DNA from: a virus
IMG/VR virus record: IMGVR_UViG_3300019487_000034
Span: 1 to 61,068 of that record
DNA length: 61,068 bases
Strand: one strand, 5' to 3'
Positions 1 to 61,068 of this stretch are shown piece after piece (position 1 is the stretch's first letter; each line of letters opens with the position of its first letter). The notes beneath the pieces were generated by a model. The model had not been told where the DNA came from. It did not search any database and saw nothing but the letters and a program-made list of their open reading frames with translations. A program made the position numbers and the translations under genes.

Positions 1-90
1 CCCCGTTGGGGTTACCCCGAACGCCCCCCCCCCCCCCAAGCGGGGTCTGCGGGACCCCCCGGGGCCCCCGCCCCCCCCCCCCCCCGCCCG
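1..90. other. Low-complexity left end (C/G runs)
   Basis: Long runs of C with short G tracts, unlike the balanced sequence that begins near base 90. A matching poly-C tract closes the right end of the window. No gene or clear structure is visible. A sequencing or assembly artefact at the molecule ends is more likely than a biological terminus. Confidence 0.6.
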
Positions 91-6335: not shown

Positions 6336-7112
6336 ATGATTAAGTTTCTTCTGGCATTGTTCACTTCGTTCTATGCGTGTACGGGACTGTCCGATTCCCT
6401 ATTCATCGGGGGAGGTACACCTGCGAAGGTGGTAAATGTTGATAATCATTTCCTCTATCTCGATGGGGTGATCACGGGTCAGACTATTGCTCCACTCCAA
6501 GAGGCACTCGAGAAGATCATCACCGCCGGTGGCAGTAAACGAGCAGTAACAATCCTCATCAATTCCCCGGGCGGTGGTGTCGTTGCCGGTATGTCCTTCA
6601 TTAATCGAATGCAGACTCTCCGTGCCCTGGGTACCGAGATTAACTGCTATGTGCTAGATGTTGCTGCCTCGATGGCATTTCAGATTCTCACTCAGTGTAC
6701 TACCCGGTATACTATGCCGACCTCCTTCCTCCTCTGGCACGGGGTTCGAATGGGAACGTATCAGCCCATTACGGCCGAACTGGCCCGGCAGATGGCAGCT
6801 GATCTCGAGCGCATGGACTTCATGGTAATGCGGCAGTTGGCTAGTACCCTCAGTATGAAGGATGATGATATCCGTAGTCACTTCCGCAATGAGACCCTGT
6901 GGTCCGGTGCCGGTCTACATTTCATAGACCCCTACTTCATTAGTATCGAGGATGCCTATCCAGAGTTGATGTCGAAGTTGGATACTGCTGTTCGCACCGA
7001 GGAGCCTATGTTCTTCCTACAATTGGATGGCATGATCTACATCTGGGAGAGTTGGGCTCGGAAGGCTGGTTTGATTCCAGCTATTCAACCTGGCATGGAG
7101 GGGGCACAGTGA
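6336..7112 (+). CDS. Exported ClpP/SppA-like serine protease
   Basis: A 258-residue protein of the ClpP/crotonase fold. ILINSPGGGVVAGM (73-86) is the oxyanion Gly-rich turn, DVAASMAF (108-115) supplies nucleophile Ser112, and MPTSFLLWHG (127-136) supplies His135. A canonical third residue is not obvious in the alignable C-terminal segment, where ERDT of ClpP corresponds roughly to RSHF. The N-terminus (MIKFLLALFTSFYAC) looks like a signal peptide, unusual for ClpP. GGAGG precedes the ATG. It may act in the periplasm with the neighbouring transglycosylase; a head maturation protease is unlikely this far from the capsid genes. Confidence 0.7.
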   Translation: MIKFLLALFTSFYACTGLSDSLFIGGGTPAKVVNVDNHFLYLDGVITGQTIAPLQEALEKIITAGGSKRAVTILINSPGGGVVAGMSFINRMQTLRALGTEINCYVLDVAASMAFQILTQCTTRYTMPTSFLLWHGVRMGTYQPITAELARQMAADLERMDFMVMRQLASTLSMKDDDIRSHFRNETLWSGAGLHFIDPYFISIEDAYPELMSKLDTAVRTEEPMFFLQLDGMIYIWESWARKAGLIPAIQPGMEGAQ

Positions 7113-16267: not shown

Positions 16268-16515
16268 GTTACCGATATGTATCCAGCATCATCTGTCCCC
16301 ACTGTGCCGATAGGGTCTGGTCCCGGTATGGTCACGACATGAGGTACTGCTTCTGTCAATACTGCTTCATCGATGGGGGACGGGCCTATACTCGGGTGGG
16401 TTATGGGGGTACCGATTGGCCCGAACCCTGGACCCCTCCAGTATTATCGAAGATGCGTGTACCAACGGCCGAACTGGCTCCGTATCAGAGGGTGACGAGC
16501 AGATGGCCCTACTAG
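16264..16515 (+). CDS. Zinc-finger-like small protein
   Basis: An 83-residue protein begun by GTG (GTGA overlap). SIICPHC and CFCQYCF contain two Cys pairs about 17 residues apart, consistent with a zinc ribbon. The C-terminal half is Pro/Trp-rich. Role unknown. Confidence 0.55.
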   Translation: MSYRYVSSIICPHCADRVWSRYGHDMRYCFCQYCFIDGGRAYTRVGYGGTDWPEPWTPPVLSKMRVPTAELAPYQRVTSRWPY

Positions 16516-16787
16516 CTTATCTTGGAAGGTCCAACGCTGTCATAATTATCCTGTTACTATCGGCATGTGCAACCCCATACCGCTACTCGGATACTCGGTA
16601 CCCCGGGTGTGAGTTGGTTCAACCGCTAATGGTGGATATGACCGGGTTGGGCTGGGATGATACCATATCCCGTACCACTATTGACCGGGCACGACACGTG
16701 TGCTACTATCGGTATCGAGGTTGCCTGTCGAAGATAACCCGCACAATGGAGTACTCCTTCCGGGTACTCTGCAGACGAACGAAGTGA
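16503..16787 (+). CDS. Small lipoprotein
   Basis: A 94-residue protein with an N-terminal membrane segment ending in a lipobox: VIIILLLSAC, with Cys22 as the lipidation site. The mature part has five further Cys, suggesting disulfides in the periplasm. Followed 20 bases later by a second lipoprotein. It could be an outer spanin subunit or a superinfection-exclusion lipoprotein. Its 3' end forms half of a hairpin described at 16749-16793. Confidence 0.65.
   Translation: MALLAYLGRSNAVIIILLLSACATPYRYSDTRYPGCELVQPLMVDMTGLGWDDTISRTTIDRARHVCYYRYRGCLSKITRTMEYSFRVLCRRTK
16681..16709 (+). promoter_or_regulatory. Candidate rightward promoter
   Basis: TTGACC (16681-16686), 17-base spacer, TACTAT (16704-16709) preceded by TGC (extended -10). 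Lies within the first lipoprotein gene, about 100 bases before the second. Confidence 0.35.
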
Positions 16788-16793
16788 GTCTGC
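16749..16793 (+). ncRNA. Double hairpin, GAACGAAGTGA loop (copy A)
   Basis: First hairpin GAGTAC/GTACTC (16749-16769). Second hairpin GCAGAC (16771-16776), 11-base loop GAACGAAGTGA, GTCTGC (16788-16793), a perfect 6-bp stem. The stop codon of the upstream lipoprotein lies in the loop, and AGGAGG for the next gene follows. Related elements are at 17068, 20646 and 21280. Confidence 0.5.
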
Positions 16794-16807
16794 TAGGAGG
16801 AGCCAGT

Positions 16808-17029
16808 ATGTTTCGCATAGGCAACATAGTGATCAGTGTACTACTGTGGACCGGAATCGTGATCCTGACCAGTTGCATGATGACTGACCCCAGTCAATGG
16901 CGCCCCGAGCAGCACATGATGATGAGTCGCAACTGCCGGATCGTGTGTAAGCCCGGGCAGGTTCTCCGATATGACTCAACTGATGGTTCATGTGATTGCC
17001 AGCCGAGTCAACCTAGACCACGCAAGTAA
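16808..17029 (+). CDS. Small lipoprotein
   Basis: A 73-residue protein. MFRIGNIVISVLLWTGIVIL precedes a TSC lipobox with Cys23. The mature part is about 50 residues with three more Cys and a Pro-rich end. AGGAGG precedes the ATG. Together with the preceding lipoprotein it forms a pair, perhaps for lysis or exclusion. Confidence 0.65.
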   Translation: MFRIGNIVISVLLWTGIVILTSCMMTDPSQWRPEQHMMMSRNCRIVCKPGQVLRYDSTDGSCDCQPSQPRPRK

Positions 17030-17067
17030 TAGCTGGGGTCACGGCTCGTGCGATTGTCAACCAACCG

Positions 17068-17101
17068 GTCGTCGTCGAGACGACTAGCGAACGGAGTGAG
17101 C
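17068..17101 (+). ncRNA. Double hairpin, GAACGGAGTGA loop (copy B)
   Basis: First hairpin GTCGTC, loop GTCGA, GACGAC (17068-17084). Second element GC-GAACGGAGTGA-GC (17087-17101). It ends one base before the CYTH start codon, so GGAG in the loop would also be the ribosome-binding site. Confidence 0.5.
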
Positions 17102-17102
17102 A

Positions 17103-17663
17103 ATGGGTCACAGAAACAGAGAGATTGAACTGAAGATGCTCGTGCCGGGAACCTACACTCACATCTGCGAGGAACTGGACAGGATACTCTCAGACGAGAA
17201 ACCGCAGATACGGACTGGTAGTTCCCTTGACACCTACTGGACCATTCATGATGGGCGTGCAGAAGCACAGTTCCTCCGGGTCCGTGAGCGTGACGGGATC
17301 CGGCAGATCACCGCCAAGGGCAAGGACCGGGGTACCAACGTCAACCGCATTGAGGTTGACATTGATTCCACCAGTGAGACCCATCGGATTCACCGCCTAC
17401 TCCGGTGTGTCCTGGGGAAGCCCGCCGGTGTAGTGCAGAAGGTGTACAAGGTGTGGGAGCTAGAGTCCGAATATGACACCGTATGCGCCTACGAGGTATT
17501 GGAACCAGAGAATAAGCTGGGCATGGTTATCGAAGTTGAGGCACGTACCGAGGAGCGCATGCGGGAACTTGAAATGCTAGTACGGGGGGCCATCCCCGGA
17601 GTGCAGACTGCACCGGGTAGTCTATATGAGTTGTTGATCGCCAAGAGTGTACCAATCAAATGA
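17103..17663 (+). CDS. CYTH-domain protein (triphosphate tunnel fold)
   Basis: A 186-residue protein with the signature EIELK (Glu7, Glu9, Lys11), the ExExK motif of CYTH enzymes, which include CyaB adenylate cyclases, thiamine triphosphatases and inorganic triphosphatases. Alternating charged strands follow, such as AQFLRVRERDG, RQITAKGKD and NRIEVDID, as expected for the tunnel. YEVLEPENKLGMVIEVE supplies the late acidic pair. It probably hydrolyses a triphosphate compound; substrate cannot be told from sequence. Its start is controlled by the hairpin copy B region. Confidence 0.78.
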   Translation: MGHRNREIELKMLVPGTYTHICEELDRILSDEKPQIRTGSSLDTYWTIHDGRAEAQFLRVRERDGIRQITAKGKDRGTNVNRIEVDIDSTSETHRIHRLLRCVLGKPAGVVQKVYKVWELESEYDTVCAYEVLEPENKLGMVIEVEARTEERMRELEMLVRGAIPGVQTAPGSLYELLIAKSVPIK

Positions 17664-17675
17664 AGGAGTGAGGAG

Positions 17676-17930
17676 ATGCCCACTGTAACAATCAAGTTCA
17701 CCCTACCCGAGGAACGGGACGAGTACGAGATGGCTAACCGAGCCATGGCCATGGCCATTGCTATTGAGCAGATTGGCAATGAGGTGTTCCGACCCGCCCG
17801 GAAGCACGGTTACCCGGAGCAGGAACTGGCTTCTCTCCTCGAGAAGTGTGGGGATGCAGGCCCGGAATTGGTATCTGCTCTGGAACAGAAGTACTATGAG
17901 ATTCTACGTGAGAATAATGCCGTGGGCTAA
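17676..17930 (+). CDS. Conserved small phage protein
   Basis: An 84-residue helical protein, VTIKFTLPEERDEYEMANRA onward. The opening strand and the LPEERDE(Y/F)E motif recall a widespread uncharacterised phage family. Good site (GGAGTGAGGAG) before the ATG. Confidence 0.6.
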   Translation: MPTVTIKFTLPEERDEYEMANRAMAMAIAIEQIGNEVFRPARKHGYPEQELASLLEKCGDAGPELVSALEQKYYEILRENNAVG

Positions 17931-17946
17931 CAGGCGAGGAATAGCT

Positions 17947-18153
17947 ATGCCGATGTATACCTGGAAGGATACACGAACTGGAGTCGAAACCGAGGTGGTT
18001 CGCAGTTTCGACGAGTGGGAGCGGCCACCCGAGCGGGACGAGGTTCTGACCCTGAGTGATTCGCAATTCGAGAAGGCCGAATGGGAACGTGTCATCGGTG
18101 CACCAGGTGTTGTCAAGGGTGCGAGATGGGGCGGCGGGAAGGGCCACTGGTAG
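17947..18153 (+). CDS. FmdB-like protein lacking the zinc cysteines
   Basis: A 68-residue protein, MPMYTWKDTRTGVETEVVRS onward. The pattern M-P-x-Y-x-W/Y then EVVRSFDEWERPP follows the FmdB/zinc-ribbon family common in phages, but the metal-binding Cys are absent (KDTRTG where CxxC would be). Basic Gly-rich tail. Weak ribosome-binding site. Confidence 0.5.
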   Translation: MPMYTWKDTRTGVETEVVRSFDEWERPPERDEVLTLSDSQFEKAEWERVIGAPGVVKGARWGGGKGHW

Positions 18154-18207
18154 CAGTGGGTAACTAATCGTGGCCTGCGCCCGTATAACGGACGAGGGGT
18201 ATTGGTA

Positions 18208-18408
18208 ATGTCAGACTTCAAATGTCCACAGTGTCAACATCCGCAGACTTGTCCATGTCCCTCCTGTCAATTGACGAACCCCACGGAGAAGCCCTGGATA
18301 TGTGACGGGGATTTCATATCCTGCGGGAACTGTGGCCTCAAGAGACATTGTGACTGGTGGTTAGATAGAGAATGGGAGTATTATGAATCTGTTGGGAAAC
18401 AAACGTAA
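18208..18408 (+). CDS. Cys-rich zinc-binding protein
   Basis: A 66-residue protein with eight Cys arranged in pairs (CPQC, CPCPSC, then CGNC), a probable double zinc ribbon. The ATG at 18208 is chosen behind GAGGGG; an in-frame TTG two codons upstream is less likely. Overlaps the next gene by 26 bases. Confidence 0.6.
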   Translation: MSDFKCPQCQHPQTCPCPSCQLTNPTEKPWICDGDFISCGNCGLKRHCDWWLDREWEYYESVGKQT

Positions 18409-18652
18409 GCGCACTAACACGTTCACGATCCGAGCATCGGATGGTGCGATCGGTGGTCGACTCAAACGTAATGGCGATCTAGATCTCAGCATCGACGGTC
18501 ACCTCTTCGCCACTATCCCAGGTAACCTCATCCCCGCATTGGCACACTGGCTGTCCTCTGTTAATGGGAGATTTGCTGATGTCCTCGATTCGAAACTACA
18601 AGCCAATGCTGCGATCATTCCCCTATCCTCAGGCAAGAGCCGGACAGAGTGA
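18383..18652 (+). CDS. Small unknown protein
   Basis: An 89-residue protein: basic N-terminus (LLGNKRKRTNTF), then a beta-like centre and hydrophobic helix (LIPALAHWLSSV). Overlaps the helicase gene by 74 bases, so the last 25 residues may be non-essential. No family recognised. Confidence 0.5.
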   Translation: MNLLGNKRKRTNTFTIRASDGAIGGRLKRNGDLDLSIDGHLFATIPGNLIPALAHWLSSVNGRFADVLDSKLQANAAIIPLSSGKSRTE

Positions 18653-20036
18653 ACTCCTCAGAACCCTGGAGCGACTCTGGAATCAGTTCGACGTATTCAT
18701 AATTTGTGCGCCCACGGCCTTCGGGAAGAGTGCCGTATCCCGGACAATTCAGGAGTGGGCCTACTCGGCCTCACTCATTACTCCGACTAATCTACTGGTC
18801 AATCAGTTTCTCACGGAGTTCCCCGAATGTCCCACACTCCACAGACTGGACTCCTACTCTTGCGAGGAGTGGCAAACCAACTGTGCTGAACATCGTGGAA
18901 AGGCTGGAGGATTCTGTCGTGGATGTCCCGCTGCGGCTGACCTAGCCAGAGCCAAGTATCGTCGGGGTCCCGGAATGTACAATTATCACATATATCTAGC
19001 CCATAAGCTCCAACGTCCCACTCTCATTGTGGATGAGGCGCACAATCTAGTTCCCACGCTACAAGACCTGCTCTCCGGTCGTATCTGGATTCACGACTAC
19101 CCGGAGTTGAGTGCGCCACCAGGTACCTCCCATTCAGAGATTCTCCATAGATTGGATAAACTTCCTCCCCATAAGAGGAAACATGTTAAGATTCAGTTAT
19201 TACATGAAGCACTGACCTCGAAGATTCCACACTATGTGATTCAGTACACGACGGATTCATTCAACGGGAAGGGCACGAAGCGTGGAGAACCGGAGGATCG
19301 ACCCTGCATTAAGCTCTACCCAGTAGATATTGGGGATTCATTCGATCTATTCACCAGGGGTGAAACGCAGAAGGTAATACTGATGTCTGCTACCATCGGT
19401 CCCGTCGATGTTACTGAGTTGGGGTTGCAGCGCAAGCGTGTGTGCTACCTCCAGGCGGCTCACCCGATCGCCCCCGATCGCCGTCCCGTACAGTTACTGT
19501 CAATTGAGGACTTGAACCATGAGAATCTTGAGGCTAGTGGCCCTCGATTAGCAGAAGAGATAATCAATATTGCTAACTACCATGCAGGGGAGAAGGGTGT
19601 AATTCACTGCACATATCAACTATCTACCATGTTATCGGAGCATCTAACAGATGTACGATACATCTTCCACGATCGTGAAAACAAGCGAGAACAATACCAG
19701 AAATTCAGAGACCTGGCACCAGAGAGTGGCGCAGTATTGGTTGCCAGTGGTATGTATGAGGGTATTGACCTACCTGACGATCTCGGTAGATGGCAGGTAA
19801 TCGCCAAGGTTCCCTGGCTTAGTCTGGCTGATCCTGCCATTAGATACAAGGCGGATCGGGAACCTGATTATTACAGATGGAGCACCCTGAAGCACCTGAT
19901 CCAGGCCTGTGGACGCATCTGCAGACACGAGGAAGATTATGGAGTTACGTACGTTTTAGATGGAAGCGTGAACCGCCTGTTAGCAGGAAGTGCTCACCTC
20001 TTACCTTCATGGTTCAGTGATGCAATTGTCGAATAG
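18579..20036 (+). CDS. DinG/XPD-like Fe-S helicase
   Basis: A 485-residue superfamily 2 helicase. Walker A APTAFGKS (44-51), DEAH (152-155), and four Cys (95, 102, 113, 116) placed between them as in the XPD/DinG iron-sulfur domain. The C-terminal half has VILMSATIG, GVIHCTYQLS, VASGMYEGIDLPDD and QACGRICRHEEDYG, motifs IV-VI. Start at 18579 follows GGGAG; an in-frame ATG at 18564 adds five residues. Probably the phage's own 5'-3' DNA or R-loop helicase. Its C-terminal end is partly duplicated just downstream. Confidence 0.85.
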   Translation: MSSIRNYKPMLRSFPYPQARAGQSELLRTLERLWNQFDVFIICAPTAFGKSAVSRTIQEWAYSASLITPTNLLVNQFLTEFPECPTLHRLDSYSCEEWQTNCAEHRGKAGGFCRGCPAAADLARAKYRRGPGMYNYHIYLAHKLQRPTLIVDEAHNLVPTLQDLLSGRIWIHDYPELSAPPGTSHSEILHRLDKLPPHKRKHVKIQLLHEALTSKIPHYVIQYTTDSFNGKGTKRGEPEDRPCIKLYPVDIGDSFDLFTRGETQKVILMSATIGPVDVTELGLQRKRVCYLQAAHPIAPDRRPVQLLSIEDLNHENLEASGPRLAEEIINIANYHAGEKGVIHCTYQLSTMLSEHLTDVRYIFHDRENKREQYQKFRDLAPESGAVLVASGMYEGIDLPDDLGRWQVIAKVPWLSLADPAIRYKADREPDYYRWSTLKHLIQACGRICRHEEDYGVTYVLDGSVNRLLAGSAHLLPSWFSDAIVE

Positions 20037-20151
20037 ATCGGGAGGGTTCGCCAGCATCCAAAACGATCTTGACGGATCTGTCGAACGTCTGATAGATTCA
20101 TCTCACCATCTCATTCCGGGATGGTTTGCCGAGGCAATCAATGCGGGATGA
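20020..20151 (+). pseudogene. Duplicated fragment of helicase C-terminus
   Basis: A frame open from ATG 20020 to TGA 20149-20151 reads LDGSVERLIDSSHHLIPGWF and AEAINAG. The helicase itself ends LDGSVNRLLAGSAHLLPSWF, then SDAIVE. The two align over about 25 residues with the same spacing, so a second, diverged 3' end of the gene sits immediately behind the complete one. It may be a relic of recombination that swapped helicase ends; translation is possible but unproven. Confidence 0.6.
20069..20098 (+). promoter_or_regulatory. Weak candidate rightward promoter
   Basis: TTGACG (20069-20074), 18-base spacer, TAGATT (20093-20098) preceded by TGA (extended -10). Lies in the duplicated helicase fragment, 84 bases before the next gene. 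Confidence 0.25.
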
Positions 20152-20181
20152 TGAGCCGCTACTGACAAGGGGAACTCTTCT

Positions 20182-20688
20182 ATGCCTTCTTGGAATATCA
20201 TTACTGCTGGTACCGGGTGGGGTACTGGTGACGCTGATTGCCCTGTTATGTCAGAAACTCCACTATTGGTGGACCACCCGATTGTGAATACTGGTACCCA
20301 GGTGAATGCCACTACGGCAACTATTCAGCAGGCACTGACCGCAGGTCCAGCACTTAAGTTTGATACTGCTAAGGTGAGGCTCGAGCTTCTCTCTGTACCC
20401 GCTATGGAGGCTATTGCCGAAGTGATGACCTTCGGTGCCCGCAAGTATGCAGCTCACAACTGGCGCAAGGGATTCGAGTGGTCTCGCCTATTCGGTGCAC
20501 TACTCCGGCACACGTTCGCCGCAATGAGGGGCGAGGACCGAGACCCGGAGTCCGGTCTCCTCCATCTGGCTCATGCCGGTTGCTGTGTCATGTTCCTATT
20601 GGAGCATGTCCTCTGCAAGCTGGGTACGGATGACCGGTATAAGTCGATTGTCGTCGAGACAATCCCGAACGAAGTGAGGGGGAAGTGA
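20182..20688 (+). CDS. dATP/dGTP pyrophosphohydrolase-like (MazZ/DUF5664)
   Basis: A 168-residue protein. Residues 59-141 match the DUF5664/MazG-related family: KFDTAKVRLELLSVPAMEAI, FGARKYAAHNW, LLRHTFAAMRGEDRDPESG and HLAHAGCC. The acidic residues Glu118, Asp119, Asp121 and Glu123 and His128 would bind magnesium. In Z-genome phages such enzymes supply dGMP for diaminopurine synthesis, but no PurZ is visible, so simple nucleotide-pool control is likelier. The first 55 residues are unrelated and Thr-rich. Its 3' end forms hairpin copy C. Confidence 0.7.
   Translation: MPSWNIITAGTGWGTGDADCPVMSETPLLVDHPIVNTGTQVNATTATIQQALTAGPALKFDTAKVRLELLSVPAMEAIAEVMTFGARKYAAHNWRKGFEWSRLFGALLRHTFAAMRGEDRDPESGLLHLAHAGCCVMFLLEHVLCKLGTDDRYKSIVVETIPNEVRGK
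20646..20679 (+). ncRNA. Double hairpin, GAACGAAGTGA loop (copy C)
   Basis: First hairpin GATTGTC, loop GTCGA, GACAATC (20646-20664), 7 bp. Second element CC-GAACGAAGTGA-GG (20665-20679). Lies at the end of the MazZ-like coding region, five bases before the next GTG start. Confidence 0.5.
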
Positions 20689-21032
20689 ACCTCATCAGTA
20701 TTGACATTCAATGCGGAGTCTGCGAACATGTTTTCGACGATCTGGTCCAACGTCCTCCGGCGGATTTCGGGATTCCTGCGTATGTCTGCACCGCCTGCGG
20801 CTCCGAGGCGTATCGTATTCCTTCTGCGCCGAGGGTACTCCGAGCCTCTCATCCCGATGGATACTCCCGAGGACCCGGATACCAGTCAATGAAGGAAGCT
20901 GCAAAGCTCAGGGCCGCACGTGCCAACCTACCGAACACGGATGCTGCTCGGGCAGATATTAATTCTGAGATTCGGAAGGTGGAGAAGGCAGCCGGTCGTG
21001 GCTATGTGAAGAAAGAGAAGGGACAGAAATGA
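20685..21032 (+). CDS. Zinc-ribbon protein
   Basis: A 115-residue protein begun by GTG (GTGA overlap). CGVC (10-13) and CTAC (35-38) form an FmdB-like zinc ribbon; the C-terminal half is a basic helix (RADINSEIRKVEKAAGRG). GGGGGAA precedes the start, next to hairpin copy C. Confidence 0.6.
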   Translation: MNLISIDIQCGVCEHVFDDLVQRPPADFGIPAYVCTACGSEAYRIPSAPRVLRASHPDGYSRGPGYQSMKEAAKLRAARANLPNTDAARADINSEIRKVEKAAGRGYVKKEKGQK

Positions 21033-21274
21033 ATAATGTCAAGCAGGCACTACTCGAGTTAGTCAATTTACAGAAGCAGCGAATCGTTCAGCTGGAGAGC
21101 CAGGTACGCCACATGGCCCGGGATCTATGTCACACTCAAGACCCCACCTACTATTCTGCATTTGCTTCTGAGATCGGAGATGTGATACGTATTAGGGGAG
21201 AGGACTGGAAACTCCTCAGTAAGAATCGCAATGAGTGTACTATCACATTGAAACTGATCGAGTCTAAACAGTAA
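21029..21274 (+). CDS. Small helical protein, unknown
   Basis: An 81-residue protein with an N-terminal coiled-coil-like helix (LVNLQKQRIVQLESQVRHM) and a beta-like C-terminus. Overlaps the previous stop (ATGA). Confidence 0.55.
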   Translation: MNNVKQALLELVNLQKQRIVQLESQVRHMARDLCHTQDPTYYSAFASEIGDVIRIRGEDWKLLSKNRNECTITLKLIESKQ

Positions 21275-21279
21275 CAGTG

Positions 21280-21316
21280 CTCGCCGTCGAGGCGAGTCCC
21301 AGCGAACGGAGTGAGC
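21280..21316 (+). ncRNA. Double hairpin, GAACGGAGTGA loop (copy D)
   Basis: First hairpin CTCGCC, loop GTCGA, GGCGAG (21280-21296). Second element GC-GAACGGAGTGA-GC (21302-21316). It occupies the 45-base gap between two genes and ends three bases before the ATG at 21320. Stem 1 differs in sequence from copies B and C but pairs perfectly. Confidence 0.5.
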
Positions 21317-21319
21317 GGT

Positions 21320-21595
21320 ATGAATGATGGATACCTTGCTAGACTGAAGCTTGTGGAACAACAGATCACTGTGATGCGCTCCGATATGAACAAGGCGCTC
21401 AATGAGGTCATGGACACAATAACCAAGATGATGACCGCCCATCGCATGTTCCAGATCTACATCGATGAGAACCTGAGGGAACTTCGGGATAAGGCAGGAC
21501 TCTCAGGTTCGCTTCTCACAGATGGTCTCGCCTCGACCGAGGATACGTCATCGATGGCGCCCTCGACGGGCGATGTCGGAGGCAAGGAGTTATGA
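21320..21595 (+). CDS. Coiled-coil protein, unknown
   Basis: A 91-residue protein: long helix to about residue 60 (LKLVEQQITVMRSDMNKALN), then a Ser/Thr/Gly-rich tail. Start 21320 fits GGAG at 21308-21311. Four bases of overlap with the collagen-like gene (ATGA) suggest joint expression. Confidence 0.55.
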   Translation: MNDGYLARLKLVEQQITVMRSDMNKALNEVMDTITKMMTAHRMFQIYIDENLRELRDKAGLSGSLLTDGLASTEDTSSMAPSTGDVGGKEL

Positions 21596-30073: not shown

Positions 30074-30877
30074 TTACTGTGCGGCCATGGTGCCGACTGC
30101 TGAAACCGCTGAGTATCCGGCGGCAGCTCCGGCGGGACCACCGATTATACCACCAGCGACAGCGCCTCCGATGCCACCGATAGTGGAGAATGTGCCCGTA
30201 CGATTTGCCTGGTCAGCTTTCTGCTTCGCAATACGCTCTTCCAGCGAACGCTTGGACTCGGCCAACTGTCGCATCAGGTTCTGGTCCTGCTTCTGATTAC
30301 TCAGAGAGTTCTGGAACTGTAGCTCCTGATTGATTCGCTGCTGAGCAGCTTCCATCATCTGGAGTTTCCGTTGGTGTAGTTGCTCAGCTGACTGAGCATA
30401 ATTCCGCAGTTGCTCTACGTCCCTAGCATGGGTAACTGCATAGTCAGCCAGCTGTCTCTCATTCATGTACTCTCGGCCCATCTCATCTCTGGCAAATTGC
30501 ATACGACTATCGAACATTTCCCGCTTCGCTTGCTCACTGAGATTGGCTAGTGCCTGCTCATCTGACAGCTGCTGTGTATCCTGGCCCCTGCGGAGATCGG
30601 AGAGACCCTGCTGCAATTGTGCCTGCTTCTGCTGCAACTCCATTCCTGCCGCCTGCTGGGTCGTGGCTAGGTTCTGCTTTGCCGTCTCAATCATTTGGGC
30701 CCCGACGTTCTGCTGAGCCGCAGCTCCGAGTTGCTGAGCAACCTGGGGAGTAGCCGCTGCTGTGGGCACGGCCTTCACGGCCTGCTGCAACTGGAGGTCA
30801 GTTGCTGCCTGGGCCTGTTGTTGGCGGCGCTGATTGGCAACCGGCATCTGATTAATTATCTGATCTAGTGCGGCCAT
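30074..30877 (-). CDS. Gln-rich internal virion protein
   Basis: A 267-residue protein, very rich in Gln and Ala, with long coiled-coil stretches and a Gly-rich membrane-like C-terminus (IGGIGGAVAGGIIGGPAGAA). The same layout is found in the next gene, suggesting an ancient duplication. Ejection protein by context. Confidence 0.65.
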   Translation of the reverse strand: MAALDQIINQMPVANQRRQQQAQAATDLQLQQAVKAVPTAAATPQVAQQLGAAAQQNVGAQMIETAKQNLATTQQAAGMELQQKQAQLQQGLSDLRRGQDTQQLSDEQALANLSEQAKREMFDSRMQFARDEMGREYMNERQLADYAVTHARDVEQLRNYAQSAEQLHQRKLQMMEAAQQRINQELQFQNSLSNQKQDQNLMRQLAESKRSLEERIAKQKADQANRTGTFSTIGGIGGAVAGGIIGGPAGAAAGYSAVSAVGTMAAQ

Positions 30878-30880
30878 ATG

Positions 30881-31735
30881 TTACTTCGTTCCCCCGGGTG
30901 GAGCCGAGGGAGACCCGGCGTCCTGCCAGCCCGTGTAACTCTTCTGCCCCCCGGCATCTTTATACTGTCCATACTCATCTGAGAAGGCACCTGACTTATA
31001 TGAGCCATATGCACTGACGCCGGCAGCTCCCATGGCCCCAACGGCGCCAATAGTTGCTGCCTGCTTCGCATCGGCCATCTCATTTTGCGCCATCTGGAGT
31101 GCTGCGTTGAGGTCGATGGAAGCCATGGCCTTCTGGAAGTCCCGATCCGAAGAGGCCAGGACATTCTGATTCCCGAGGCTCTTCACCAATAGATCCTTAT
31201 TAGATCCGAGGACTGCCTTCTGCAGGGCCTCCTTGAAGGCGAGATCATTATCCAGACGATTCCGCTGACCTTCGAGTTCCAACTTGTCGAGGTACTTCTG
31301 GTCACCCATGCGCATCGTGTGGGACAGTTGCTCCAACTTCGCCTTATCTTTCTCGAAGTCGAGAGTTCCACGCTGCCTTCCGAGATCTGACAGTAACTCC
31401 TGCTTCCGTATAGAGTTCTGCTGTTGCATTTGCTGGCGACGGAGATCGAGATCCGCACGAGCCGATTGCTCCTGCATCCCGAGTTGTTGCACCTTCTGCC
31501 CAACCTCGGCAGCGGCTAGTTGCCCCTGGGGTTGCAGTTGTTCCAACTGTTGCCGGGTCTGGTCCACCGCAGCCGATTCTGCAATAGCAGATTGTGGCGC
31601 AAGCTGACCGGCACCCACTGCCTTCCCGCTCTTCGCTGCCAGGAGTTGCCGGGCCCGACCAGTCTGATCGGTTGTACCGACAGCTTCGGTCCCCGTGGCT
31701 GCTAGGTTGCGTTGAATCTTATCGATGAGGGCCAT
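30881..31735 (-). CDS. Gln-rich internal virion protein, paralogue
   Basis: A 284-residue protein. Gln-rich coiled coil (QQLEQLQPQGQL, LDLRRQQMQQQN), then a Gly/Ala-rich segment (AATIGAVGAMGAAGVSAYGS) and a Gly/Ser/Pro tail. Architecture resembles the neighbouring 30074 gene. It precedes that gene with three bases between. Confidence 0.65.
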   Translation of the reverse strand: MALIDKIQRNLAATGTEAVGTTDQTGRARQLLAAKSGKAVGAGQLAPQSAIAESAAVDQTRQQLEQLQPQGQLAAAEVGQKVQQLGMQEQSARADLDLRRQQMQQQNSIRKQELLSDLGRQRGTLDFEKDKAKLEQLSHTMRMGDQKYLDKLELEGQRNRLDNDLAFKEALQKAVLGSNKDLLVKSLGNQNVLASSDRDFQKAMASIDLNAALQMAQNEMADAKQAATIGAVGAMGAAGVSAYGSYKSGAFSDEYGQYKDAGGQKSYTGWQDAGSPSAPPGGTK

Positions 31736-60792: not shown

Positions 60793-61068
60793 CGGCCCGT
60801 GTGTAAGTGCCGGAGTGTAGTGGTAGAAGTTGTGGCCCGGGCGTCGAGAGCAAACCCACTTCCACGTCGGTGGTTCTTAACACCTACCCCACGGTGGGCT
60901 TGGGATAGGAGAGGGGGGAAGTAACCAGCTAACACTGCTGGGGTATGCCCAGTACGACCCATCGCACCCAATACGGGTACCAGCGTACCCACAGGGTCCC
61001 AGTCCCCCCCCCCCCCCCCCCCCCCTTTCTTTCTCTCTTTTGTCCCCCCCCACTCCCACCACCCGCGA
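60793..61068. other. Right end, hairpins then poly-C
   Basis: Non-coding. GGGTAC/GTACCC (60975-60990, loop CAGC), TCCGGC/GCCGGA (starting near 60792) and CCAGC/GCTGG near 60926-60943 are visible before long C runs from about 61003. The C runs are probably artefacts. No genes supported. Confidence 0.5.

What the first reader, a model, noticed from the sequence alone, without database searches (positions are those of the whole stretch)
16749..21316. Four-copy RNA element with a shared GAACGRAGTGA loop and covarying stems
Four places (16749-16793, 17068-17101, 20646-20679, 21280-21316) carry a first hairpin then an 11-base loop GAACGAAGTGA or GAACGGAGTGA closed by complementary bases. In copies B, C and D the first hairpin keeps the loop GTCGA while the stems differ (GTCGTC, GATTGTC, CTCGCC) and each pairs perfectly, which is covariation. 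The second stem also varies (GCAGAC, GC, CC, GC). Within the loop, GA...GA could form tandem sheared G-A pairs around AC/GU. Each element ends just before a start codon, and in B and D the GGAG may be the ribosome-binding site. This suggests a repeated translational or RNA-processing switch across a five-gene stretch.
Basis: seen in the sequence. Interest (0 to 1): 0.82.

Follow-up and report, generated by a model that had tools for sequence, protein, structure and literature searches.

The report
Repeated hairpin ribosome-binding cassette in phage
An uncultivated 61 kb phage carries four copies of a short structured sequence, each placed just before a gene's start, and related phages carry similar hairpin leaders in front of unrelated genes, which suggests small plug-in ribosome-binding cassettes that move between genes.

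Summary
GAACGRAGTGA occurs at the four stated places and nowhere else with a closing stem; 300 dinucleotide shuffles never gave a copy with a closing stem or an upstream hairpin. In copies B, C and D the first hairpin keeps loop GTCGA, and 3 of 6 stem pairs change on both sides. Copy A shares only the second hairpin. All four sit in the sense strand just before starts of four unrelated genes, with the Shine-Dalgarno (SD) sequence inside or beside the second hairpin. The second hairpin is a general fold, stem-GA-NN-GNA-N'N'-GA-stem, also found in many unrelated bacteria, archaea and viruses. In related 57-61 kb phages the composite is absent, but analogous leaders exist: GACTGAAAGGA hairpins carrying the SD, and a GGGCAC/GWTACA class. 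Near-identical leaders precede non-homologous genes, one pair differing by a single compensatory base-pair change. Copy C is an in-frame insertion of about 35 bp compared with relatives. Best reading: lineage-specific, transferable hairpin leader cassettes that supply or shape the ribosome-binding site. Switching is not shown. It is not an N4-type promoter, REP or T4 PeSL by the features tested.

The parts
16749..16769 (+). copy A, first hairpin GAGTAC-9 nt-GTACTC (different loop; probably not homologous to B-D)
16771..16793 (+). copy A, second hairpin GCAGAC-GAACGAAGTGA-GTCTGC; its TGA is the stop codon of the upstream lipoprotein gene 16503-16787; SD AGGAGGAG follows at once
17068..17084 (+). 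copy B, first hairpin GTCGTC-GTCGA-GACGAC
17087..17101 (+). copy B, second hairpin GC-GAACGGAGTGA-GC holding the SD (AACGGAG), 1 nt before ATG 17103
20646..20664 (+). copy C, first hairpin GATTGTC-GTCGA-GACAATC, inside an in-frame insertion in the dATP/dGTP diphosphohydrolase gene
20664..20680 (+). copy C, second hairpin CC(C)-GAACGAAGTGA-GG(G); SD-like GAGG in its 3' arm; start GTG 20685
21280..21296 (+). copy D, first hairpin CTCGCC-GTCGA-GGCGAG
21302..21316 (+). copy D, second hairpin GC-GAACGGAGTGA-GC holding the SD, 3 nt before ATG 21320
16808..17029 (+). gene after A: small lipoprotein, orthologues in three relatives
17103..17663 (+). gene after B: 186 aa, no Pfam or PHROG match (looks CYTH-like by eye)
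20182..20688 (+). gene into which C is inserted: dATP/dGTP diphosphohydrolase
20685..21032 (+). gene after C: small protein with Cys pairs (zinc-ribbon-like by eye), conserved in relatives
21320..21595 (+). gene after D: 91 aa, orthologue in G003

Best explanation
The four elements are copies of a lineage-specific leader cassette of about 34-37 bp that occupies the junction immediately before a start codon and contains or abuts the ribosome-binding site. The core is the second mini-hairpin, stem-GA-NN-GNA-N'N'-GA-stem. In B and D its inner pair and triloop contain the SD, in C its 3' arm does, and in A the SD begins just after it. The upstream GTCGA hairpin in B, C and D shields or positions the SD in the polycistronic mRNA. 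The phage group uses several such cassette types, which have been gained, lost or re-paired with unrelated genes. Shown: repetition, sense placement before unrelated genes, compensatory changes, insertion relative to relatives, analogous cassettes before non-homologous genes. Inferred: action in the mRNA, and that it sets or insulates translation of the downstream gene (weak hairpin 2 must open for the 30S subunit). Not shown: a ligand, a binding protein, or how copies spread.
For: Not chance. Helix 1 both-side changes in 3 of 6 pairs with three constant pairs, so homologous copies with compensation. All 4 in the 8.3% of the early region within 40 nt upstream of a + start. SD overlap. RNA folding places hairpin 2 in the optimum for all four. 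The four downstream proteins are not homologous to one another. Copy C: relatives read GATAACCGGTACAAA|GGGGGAAAATAA and GATAACCGG|AGGGGGAAGTGA where the window has about 35-39 extra bp in frame. Relatives: GACTGAAAGGA (GA-CT-GAA-AG-GA) with different 4-bp stems right before ATG in G012, G015 and G017 (two); GA/GA is the top mismatch class among such hairpins before starts, 5 against at most 2. G015 and G017 leaders are 32/34 identical, the only two differences being the two sides of one pair (T-A to C-G), before non-homologous genes. An all-against-all leader comparison finds the near-identical leaders before unrelated genes mostly in these hairpin classes. Hairpins just upstream of the SD: 65 of 1207 starts against 20-32 at six control offsets.
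Against: The composite GTCGA + GAACGRAGTGA element is known from this one genome, so covariation rests on three copies. Energies are ordinary. GAACGGAGTGA before ATG in other viruses is flanked by 3 or more pairs in only 11 of 110 cases (expected 2.3), so sequence alone often suffices there. SD-like sequence biases the search near starts. No expression data.
Confidence: 0.5

Rival explanations
1. Selfish or neutral palindromic repeat (REP/dRS3-like) that lands in gene junctions because they tolerate it; the SD overlap is incidental.
For: The hairpin-2 fold is a very widespread dispersed repeat cap in bacteria and archaea (GTCATTCC-GAACGAAGTGA-GGAATC) and caps a long intergenic hairpin in microviruses. 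Copy C is an insertion that lengthens a protein.
Against: All copies are in one orientation and 4-8 nt from starts for B-D; GGA versus GAA follows whether the loop acts as SD (GGA in B and D, GAA in A and C). REP's 5' GTAG (PMC8266576) is absent beside the hairpins and no transposase gene was recognised among the proteins scanned.
Confidence: 0.22
2. Processing or stability site: paired hairpins mark where a host or phage nuclease separates cistrons, leaving a 5'-protected mRNA that starts just before the SD.
For: Intercistronic position; hairpin directly 5' of the SD as in many starts of this group.
Against: Stems of 6-7 bp plus 2-6 bp are short for RNase III (established knowledge); no conserved cleavage sequence can be tested here.
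Confidence: 0.13
3. Hairpin promoters read by a virion-carried RNA polymerase as in phage N4: extruded DNA hairpins with C(GNA)G-type loops.
For: N4 promoter hairpins have a 3-base loop with a sheared G:A pair, and stem identity is free where not contacted (PMC4496689). The GWTACA class of relatives has a 7-bp stem, 3-nt loop and a conserved tail just before the SD.
Against: No N4 vRNAP-like protein in the window or 11 relatives (phmmer), no PF00940 match (the control genomes were silent too). The window's first hairpins have 5-nt loops. A start at the element's end would remove the SD in B and D.
Confidence: 0.07
4. Translational operator bound by a phage or host RNA-binding protein that recognises the GTCGA loop and co-represses or co-activates the downstream genes.
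For: Loop constant while stems vary in three copies, as expected for loop-recognising proteins.
Against: Copy A lacks this loop; no candidate regulator was identified; relatives have no such operator.
Confidence: 0.08

Closest known systems
PeSLs, promoter early stem-loops of T4-type phages (Arbiol 2010; Comeau 2014, cited in PMC3950731, PMC4503421, PMC5931544; the original papers were not held)
   Same: Repeated stem-loop cassettes in intergenic regions before phage genes, linked to gene shuffling.
   Different: PeSLs join a sigma70-type early promoter to a stem-loop/terminator; here promoter-like sites are at chance (6 against 8.1 expected), none near B, C or D, and the SD lies in the cassette.
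REP elements / TnpA-REP
   Same: Short repeated palindromes, mostly outside genes.
   Different: No GTAG guide beside the hairpin, no TnpA-REP recognised, one orientation, SD-linked.
N4 vRNAP hairpin promoters
   Same: Small hairpins with GNA-like triloops, some variable stem positions.
   Different: No vRNAP found; position would delete the SD; first hairpin has a 5-nt loop.
Widespread bacterial repeat GTCATTCC-GAACGAAGTGA-GGAATC (dRS3-like, from memory)
   Same: Identical 11-nt cap closed by a stem.
   Different: Different stems; not shown to be tied to starts in this work; no GTCGA hairpin.
SD-sequestering or SD-presenting RNA hairpins in phage mRNAs (for example MS2, T4; from memory)
   Same: SD within a local hairpin beside the start codon.
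   Different: Here the hairpin is a repeated cassette before unrelated genes with a tandem-GA/GNA core.

Membership tests
PeSL (T4-type) | stem-loop repeated in intergenic regions before genes | tested here: met
PeSL (T4-type) | joined to an early sigma70-type promoter | tested here: not met
   only one weak promoter-like site (16681-16709) near A, none near B, C, D; total at chance
PeSL (T4-type) | linked to shuffling of the downstream gene | tested here: inconclusive
   met for relatives' cassettes, which precede non-homologous genes; for the window's own type only four mutually unrelated downstream genes
REP | 5' GTAG-type tetranucleotide beside the palindrome | tested here: not met
   sequence; definition from PMC8266576
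REP | cognate TnpA-REP (Y1) transposase | tested here: inconclusive
   none recognised among the proteins scanned; a host enzyme cannot be excluded
N4 vRNAP promoter | hairpin with 3-nt loop and free stem positions | tested here: inconclusive
   hairpin 2 can form a GNA triloop, hairpin 1 has 5 nt
N4 vRNAP promoter | phage encodes vRNAP | tested here: not met
   (the PF00940 search lacked a ringing control)
Rfam families | match above gathering score | tested here: not met
Tandem-GA/GNA mini-hairpin | stem-GA-NN-GNA-N'N'-GA-stem | tested here: met
Translational operator/switch | ligand or protein changes translation | not testable with these tools
   needs experiment

The most novel reading that the evidence does not exclude
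A phage lineage uses interchangeable, self-contained hairpin ribosome-binding cassettes built on the tandem-GA/GNA mini-hairpin. They move between unrelated genes as mobile translation-initiation parts, and stem base pairs are kept by selection while sequences change.
Probability: 0.35. Interest if true: 0.75.

Novelty: new variant of a known kind. Interest (0 to 1): 0.57.

Why it matters
Mobile regulatory hairpins in phages have been described with promoters and terminators; here the moving unit appears to carry the ribosome-binding site itself. That would explain how newly acquired phage genes become expressed at once. The shared mini-hairpin core is also common in unrelated genomes and lacks an explanation in the papers I could search.

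Tried and rejected
Exact composite pattern in IMG/VR: 21 hits, none with the GTCGA hairpin. Covariance model of B-D over 12 phages: no copy beyond B-D. Rfam: none. tRNA: none. Nucleotide match to GenBank phages: none; short query only chance or cap-level matches. Literature searches for the literal sequences: none relevant. N4-type promoter: no polymerase. The DNA energy model does not show hairpin 2 for the 2-3 bp copies B, C and D, but it has no special term for sheared GA or GNA loops. Helicase and polymerase single-sequence scans failed before the aligned query worked. The raw count of GCGAACGRAGTGAGC in viral contigs is close to a rough chance estimate and was not used as evidence.

Full report
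What is there. The window is a 61,068-base virus record. It has a family A DNA polymerase, a helicase, a dATP/dGTP diphosphohydrolase, a uracil-DNA glycosylase-like protein, a P22-like portal and a large terminase. Genes run + up to about 24 kb and mostly - after that. GAACGRAGTGA is found exactly at the four stated places and once more without a stem at 6361 (-). In 300 dinucleotide shuffles the motif occurred 0.05 times on average, and never with a closing stem or an upstream hairpin; here four have both.

Anatomy. Copies B, C and D consist of a 6-7 bp hairpin with loop GTCGA, then 0-6 nt, then a short stem around GAACGRAGTGA. An alignment of the three shows three constant and three doubly changed pairs in helix 1 and one doubly changed pair in helix 2. 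All cells pair, while sliding the partner drops pairing to 18-47%. Constant positions between changed ones indicate common descent with compensation. Copy A shares hairpin 2 (6-bp stem) but its first hairpin has a different loop and scores at noise level against a model of B-D.

Placement. The motif ends 21, 4, 8 and 6 nt before the start codons at 16808, 17103, 20685 and 21320. In B and D the loop contains AACGGAG, a common ribosome-binding site in this genome. In C the 3' arm GAGG serves, and in A the SD AGGAGGAG follows directly. The triloop is GGA where the loop is the SD (B, D) and GAA where it is not (A, C). With four cases this is suggestive only. The four downstream proteins are unrelated to one another.

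The second hairpin is a general fold. GAACGRAGTGA can be read as GA-AC-GRA-GT-GA: tandem GA/AG mismatches, two pairs and a GNA triloop. A 17-base version with a 3-bp stem is found in more than 116 stretches across many bacterial and archaeal phyla, mostly as GTCATTCC-GAACGAAGTGA-GGAATC but also with other stems. In those loci, outside the bait, I looked at hairpins with an outer stem, two mismatches per side, two inner pairs and a triloop. GA/GA is the only enriched mismatch class (40 cases, plus the same sites read on the other strand; other classes at most 3). Its triloops are mostly GNA and its inner pairs vary (AC/GT, GC/GC, CC/GG). In viral contigs, GAACGGAGTGA found 2-9 nt before ATG is flanked by at least 3 complementary bases in 11 of 110 cases, against 2.3 expected and at most 8 in 500 flank shuffles. 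In two microviruses the same cap closes a long intergenic hairpin.

Relatives. Terminase and helicase profiles brought in about a dozen related phages, mostly 57-61 kb contigs. They share the early gene set but not the composite element. At the C junction two relatives have an uninterrupted site: GATAACCGGTACAAA|GGGGGAAAATAA (L169) and GATAACCGG|AGGGGGAAGTGA (L176). The window has 35-39 extra bases there that hold the element and extend the protein in frame (...DDRYK-SIVVETIPNEV-RGK*). So this copy is an insertion, or the relatives lost it.

Analogous cassettes. First, GACTGAAAGGA (GA-CT-GAA-AG-GA, SD in its 3' half) lies directly before ATG with stems AAAC/GTTT (G012), TAAT/ATTA (G015), CAAT/ATTG and TGAC/GTCA (G017). 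The G015 and G017 leaders CAGAAAAGAYAATGACTGAAAGGAATTRGCTATG match at 32 of 34 positions. The two differences are the two sides of one base pair, and the genes behind them are not homologous. The G017 gene after TGAC/GTCA has an orthologue in G015 without the hairpin. Second, G015 (8 copies), G011 (3), G017 (2) and G013 (1) have a hairpin, mostly of the form GGRCNC..GNGYCC, followed at once by GWTACA and often GGAG and a start; control tails give 0-1 per genome. An all-against-all comparison of leaders, leaving out homologous genes, returned mainly these classes and the window's B/D pair. More generally, hairpins ending 0-12 nt before the SD occur at 65 of 1207 starts against 20-32 at control offsets.

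Interpretation. Position, orientation, SD overlap and re-use before unrelated genes point to leader cassettes that act at translation initiation. How copies spread, and whether a protein or condition regulates them, is unknown. Alternatives (neutral palindromic repeat, processing site, N4-like promoter, protein operator) are weighed in the rivals. Promoter-like sites are at chance in the region, and no N4-type polymerase was detected.

Limits. Only three full copies in one genome; near-identical records are hidden from the searches; no expression data. RNA folding energies are ordinary. The DNA energy model shows hairpin 2 only for copy A, but it lacks terms for this kind of loop.

Noticed in passing
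G015 (L320), G011 (L311), G017 (L324), G013 (L315): Second hairpin class: mostly GGRCNC(N)-3/4 nt-(N)GNGYCC then GWTACA, up to 8 copies per genome with compensatory stem changes, usually just before an SD; one copy inverted (G015:46323 +).
   Followed up: partly
L171 4500-5500, L172 3200-4300, L174 2180-3260, L176 4250-5330: Family A DNA polymerase genes of four relatives carry intein-like insertions at two sites; in L171 and L176 a further ORF lies inside in another frame. The window's polymerase has none.
   Followed up: partly
L052-L167 (public genomes): GTCATTCC-GAACGAAGTGA-GGAATC is a dispersed repeat in a very wide range of bacterial and archaeal phyla; no paper found with its sequence.
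   Followed up: partly
window 20020-20151: Small ORF resembling the C-terminus of the preceding helicase (partial duplication); G003 also has two such stretches (L168 2616-2699 and 3136-3228).
   Followed up: no
window 24-85 and 61004-61025: Long C runs at both ends of the record, possibly assembly or library artefacts.
   Followed up: no
L573 341-440, L574 341-440: In two microviruses GAACGAAGTGA lies in the loop of a long (about 17 bp) intergenic hairpin.
   Followed up: no
window 30878-30892 (-): GAACGAAGTAAC lies directly before the start of gene 30074-30877, one base off the motif, without a stem.
   Followed up: no
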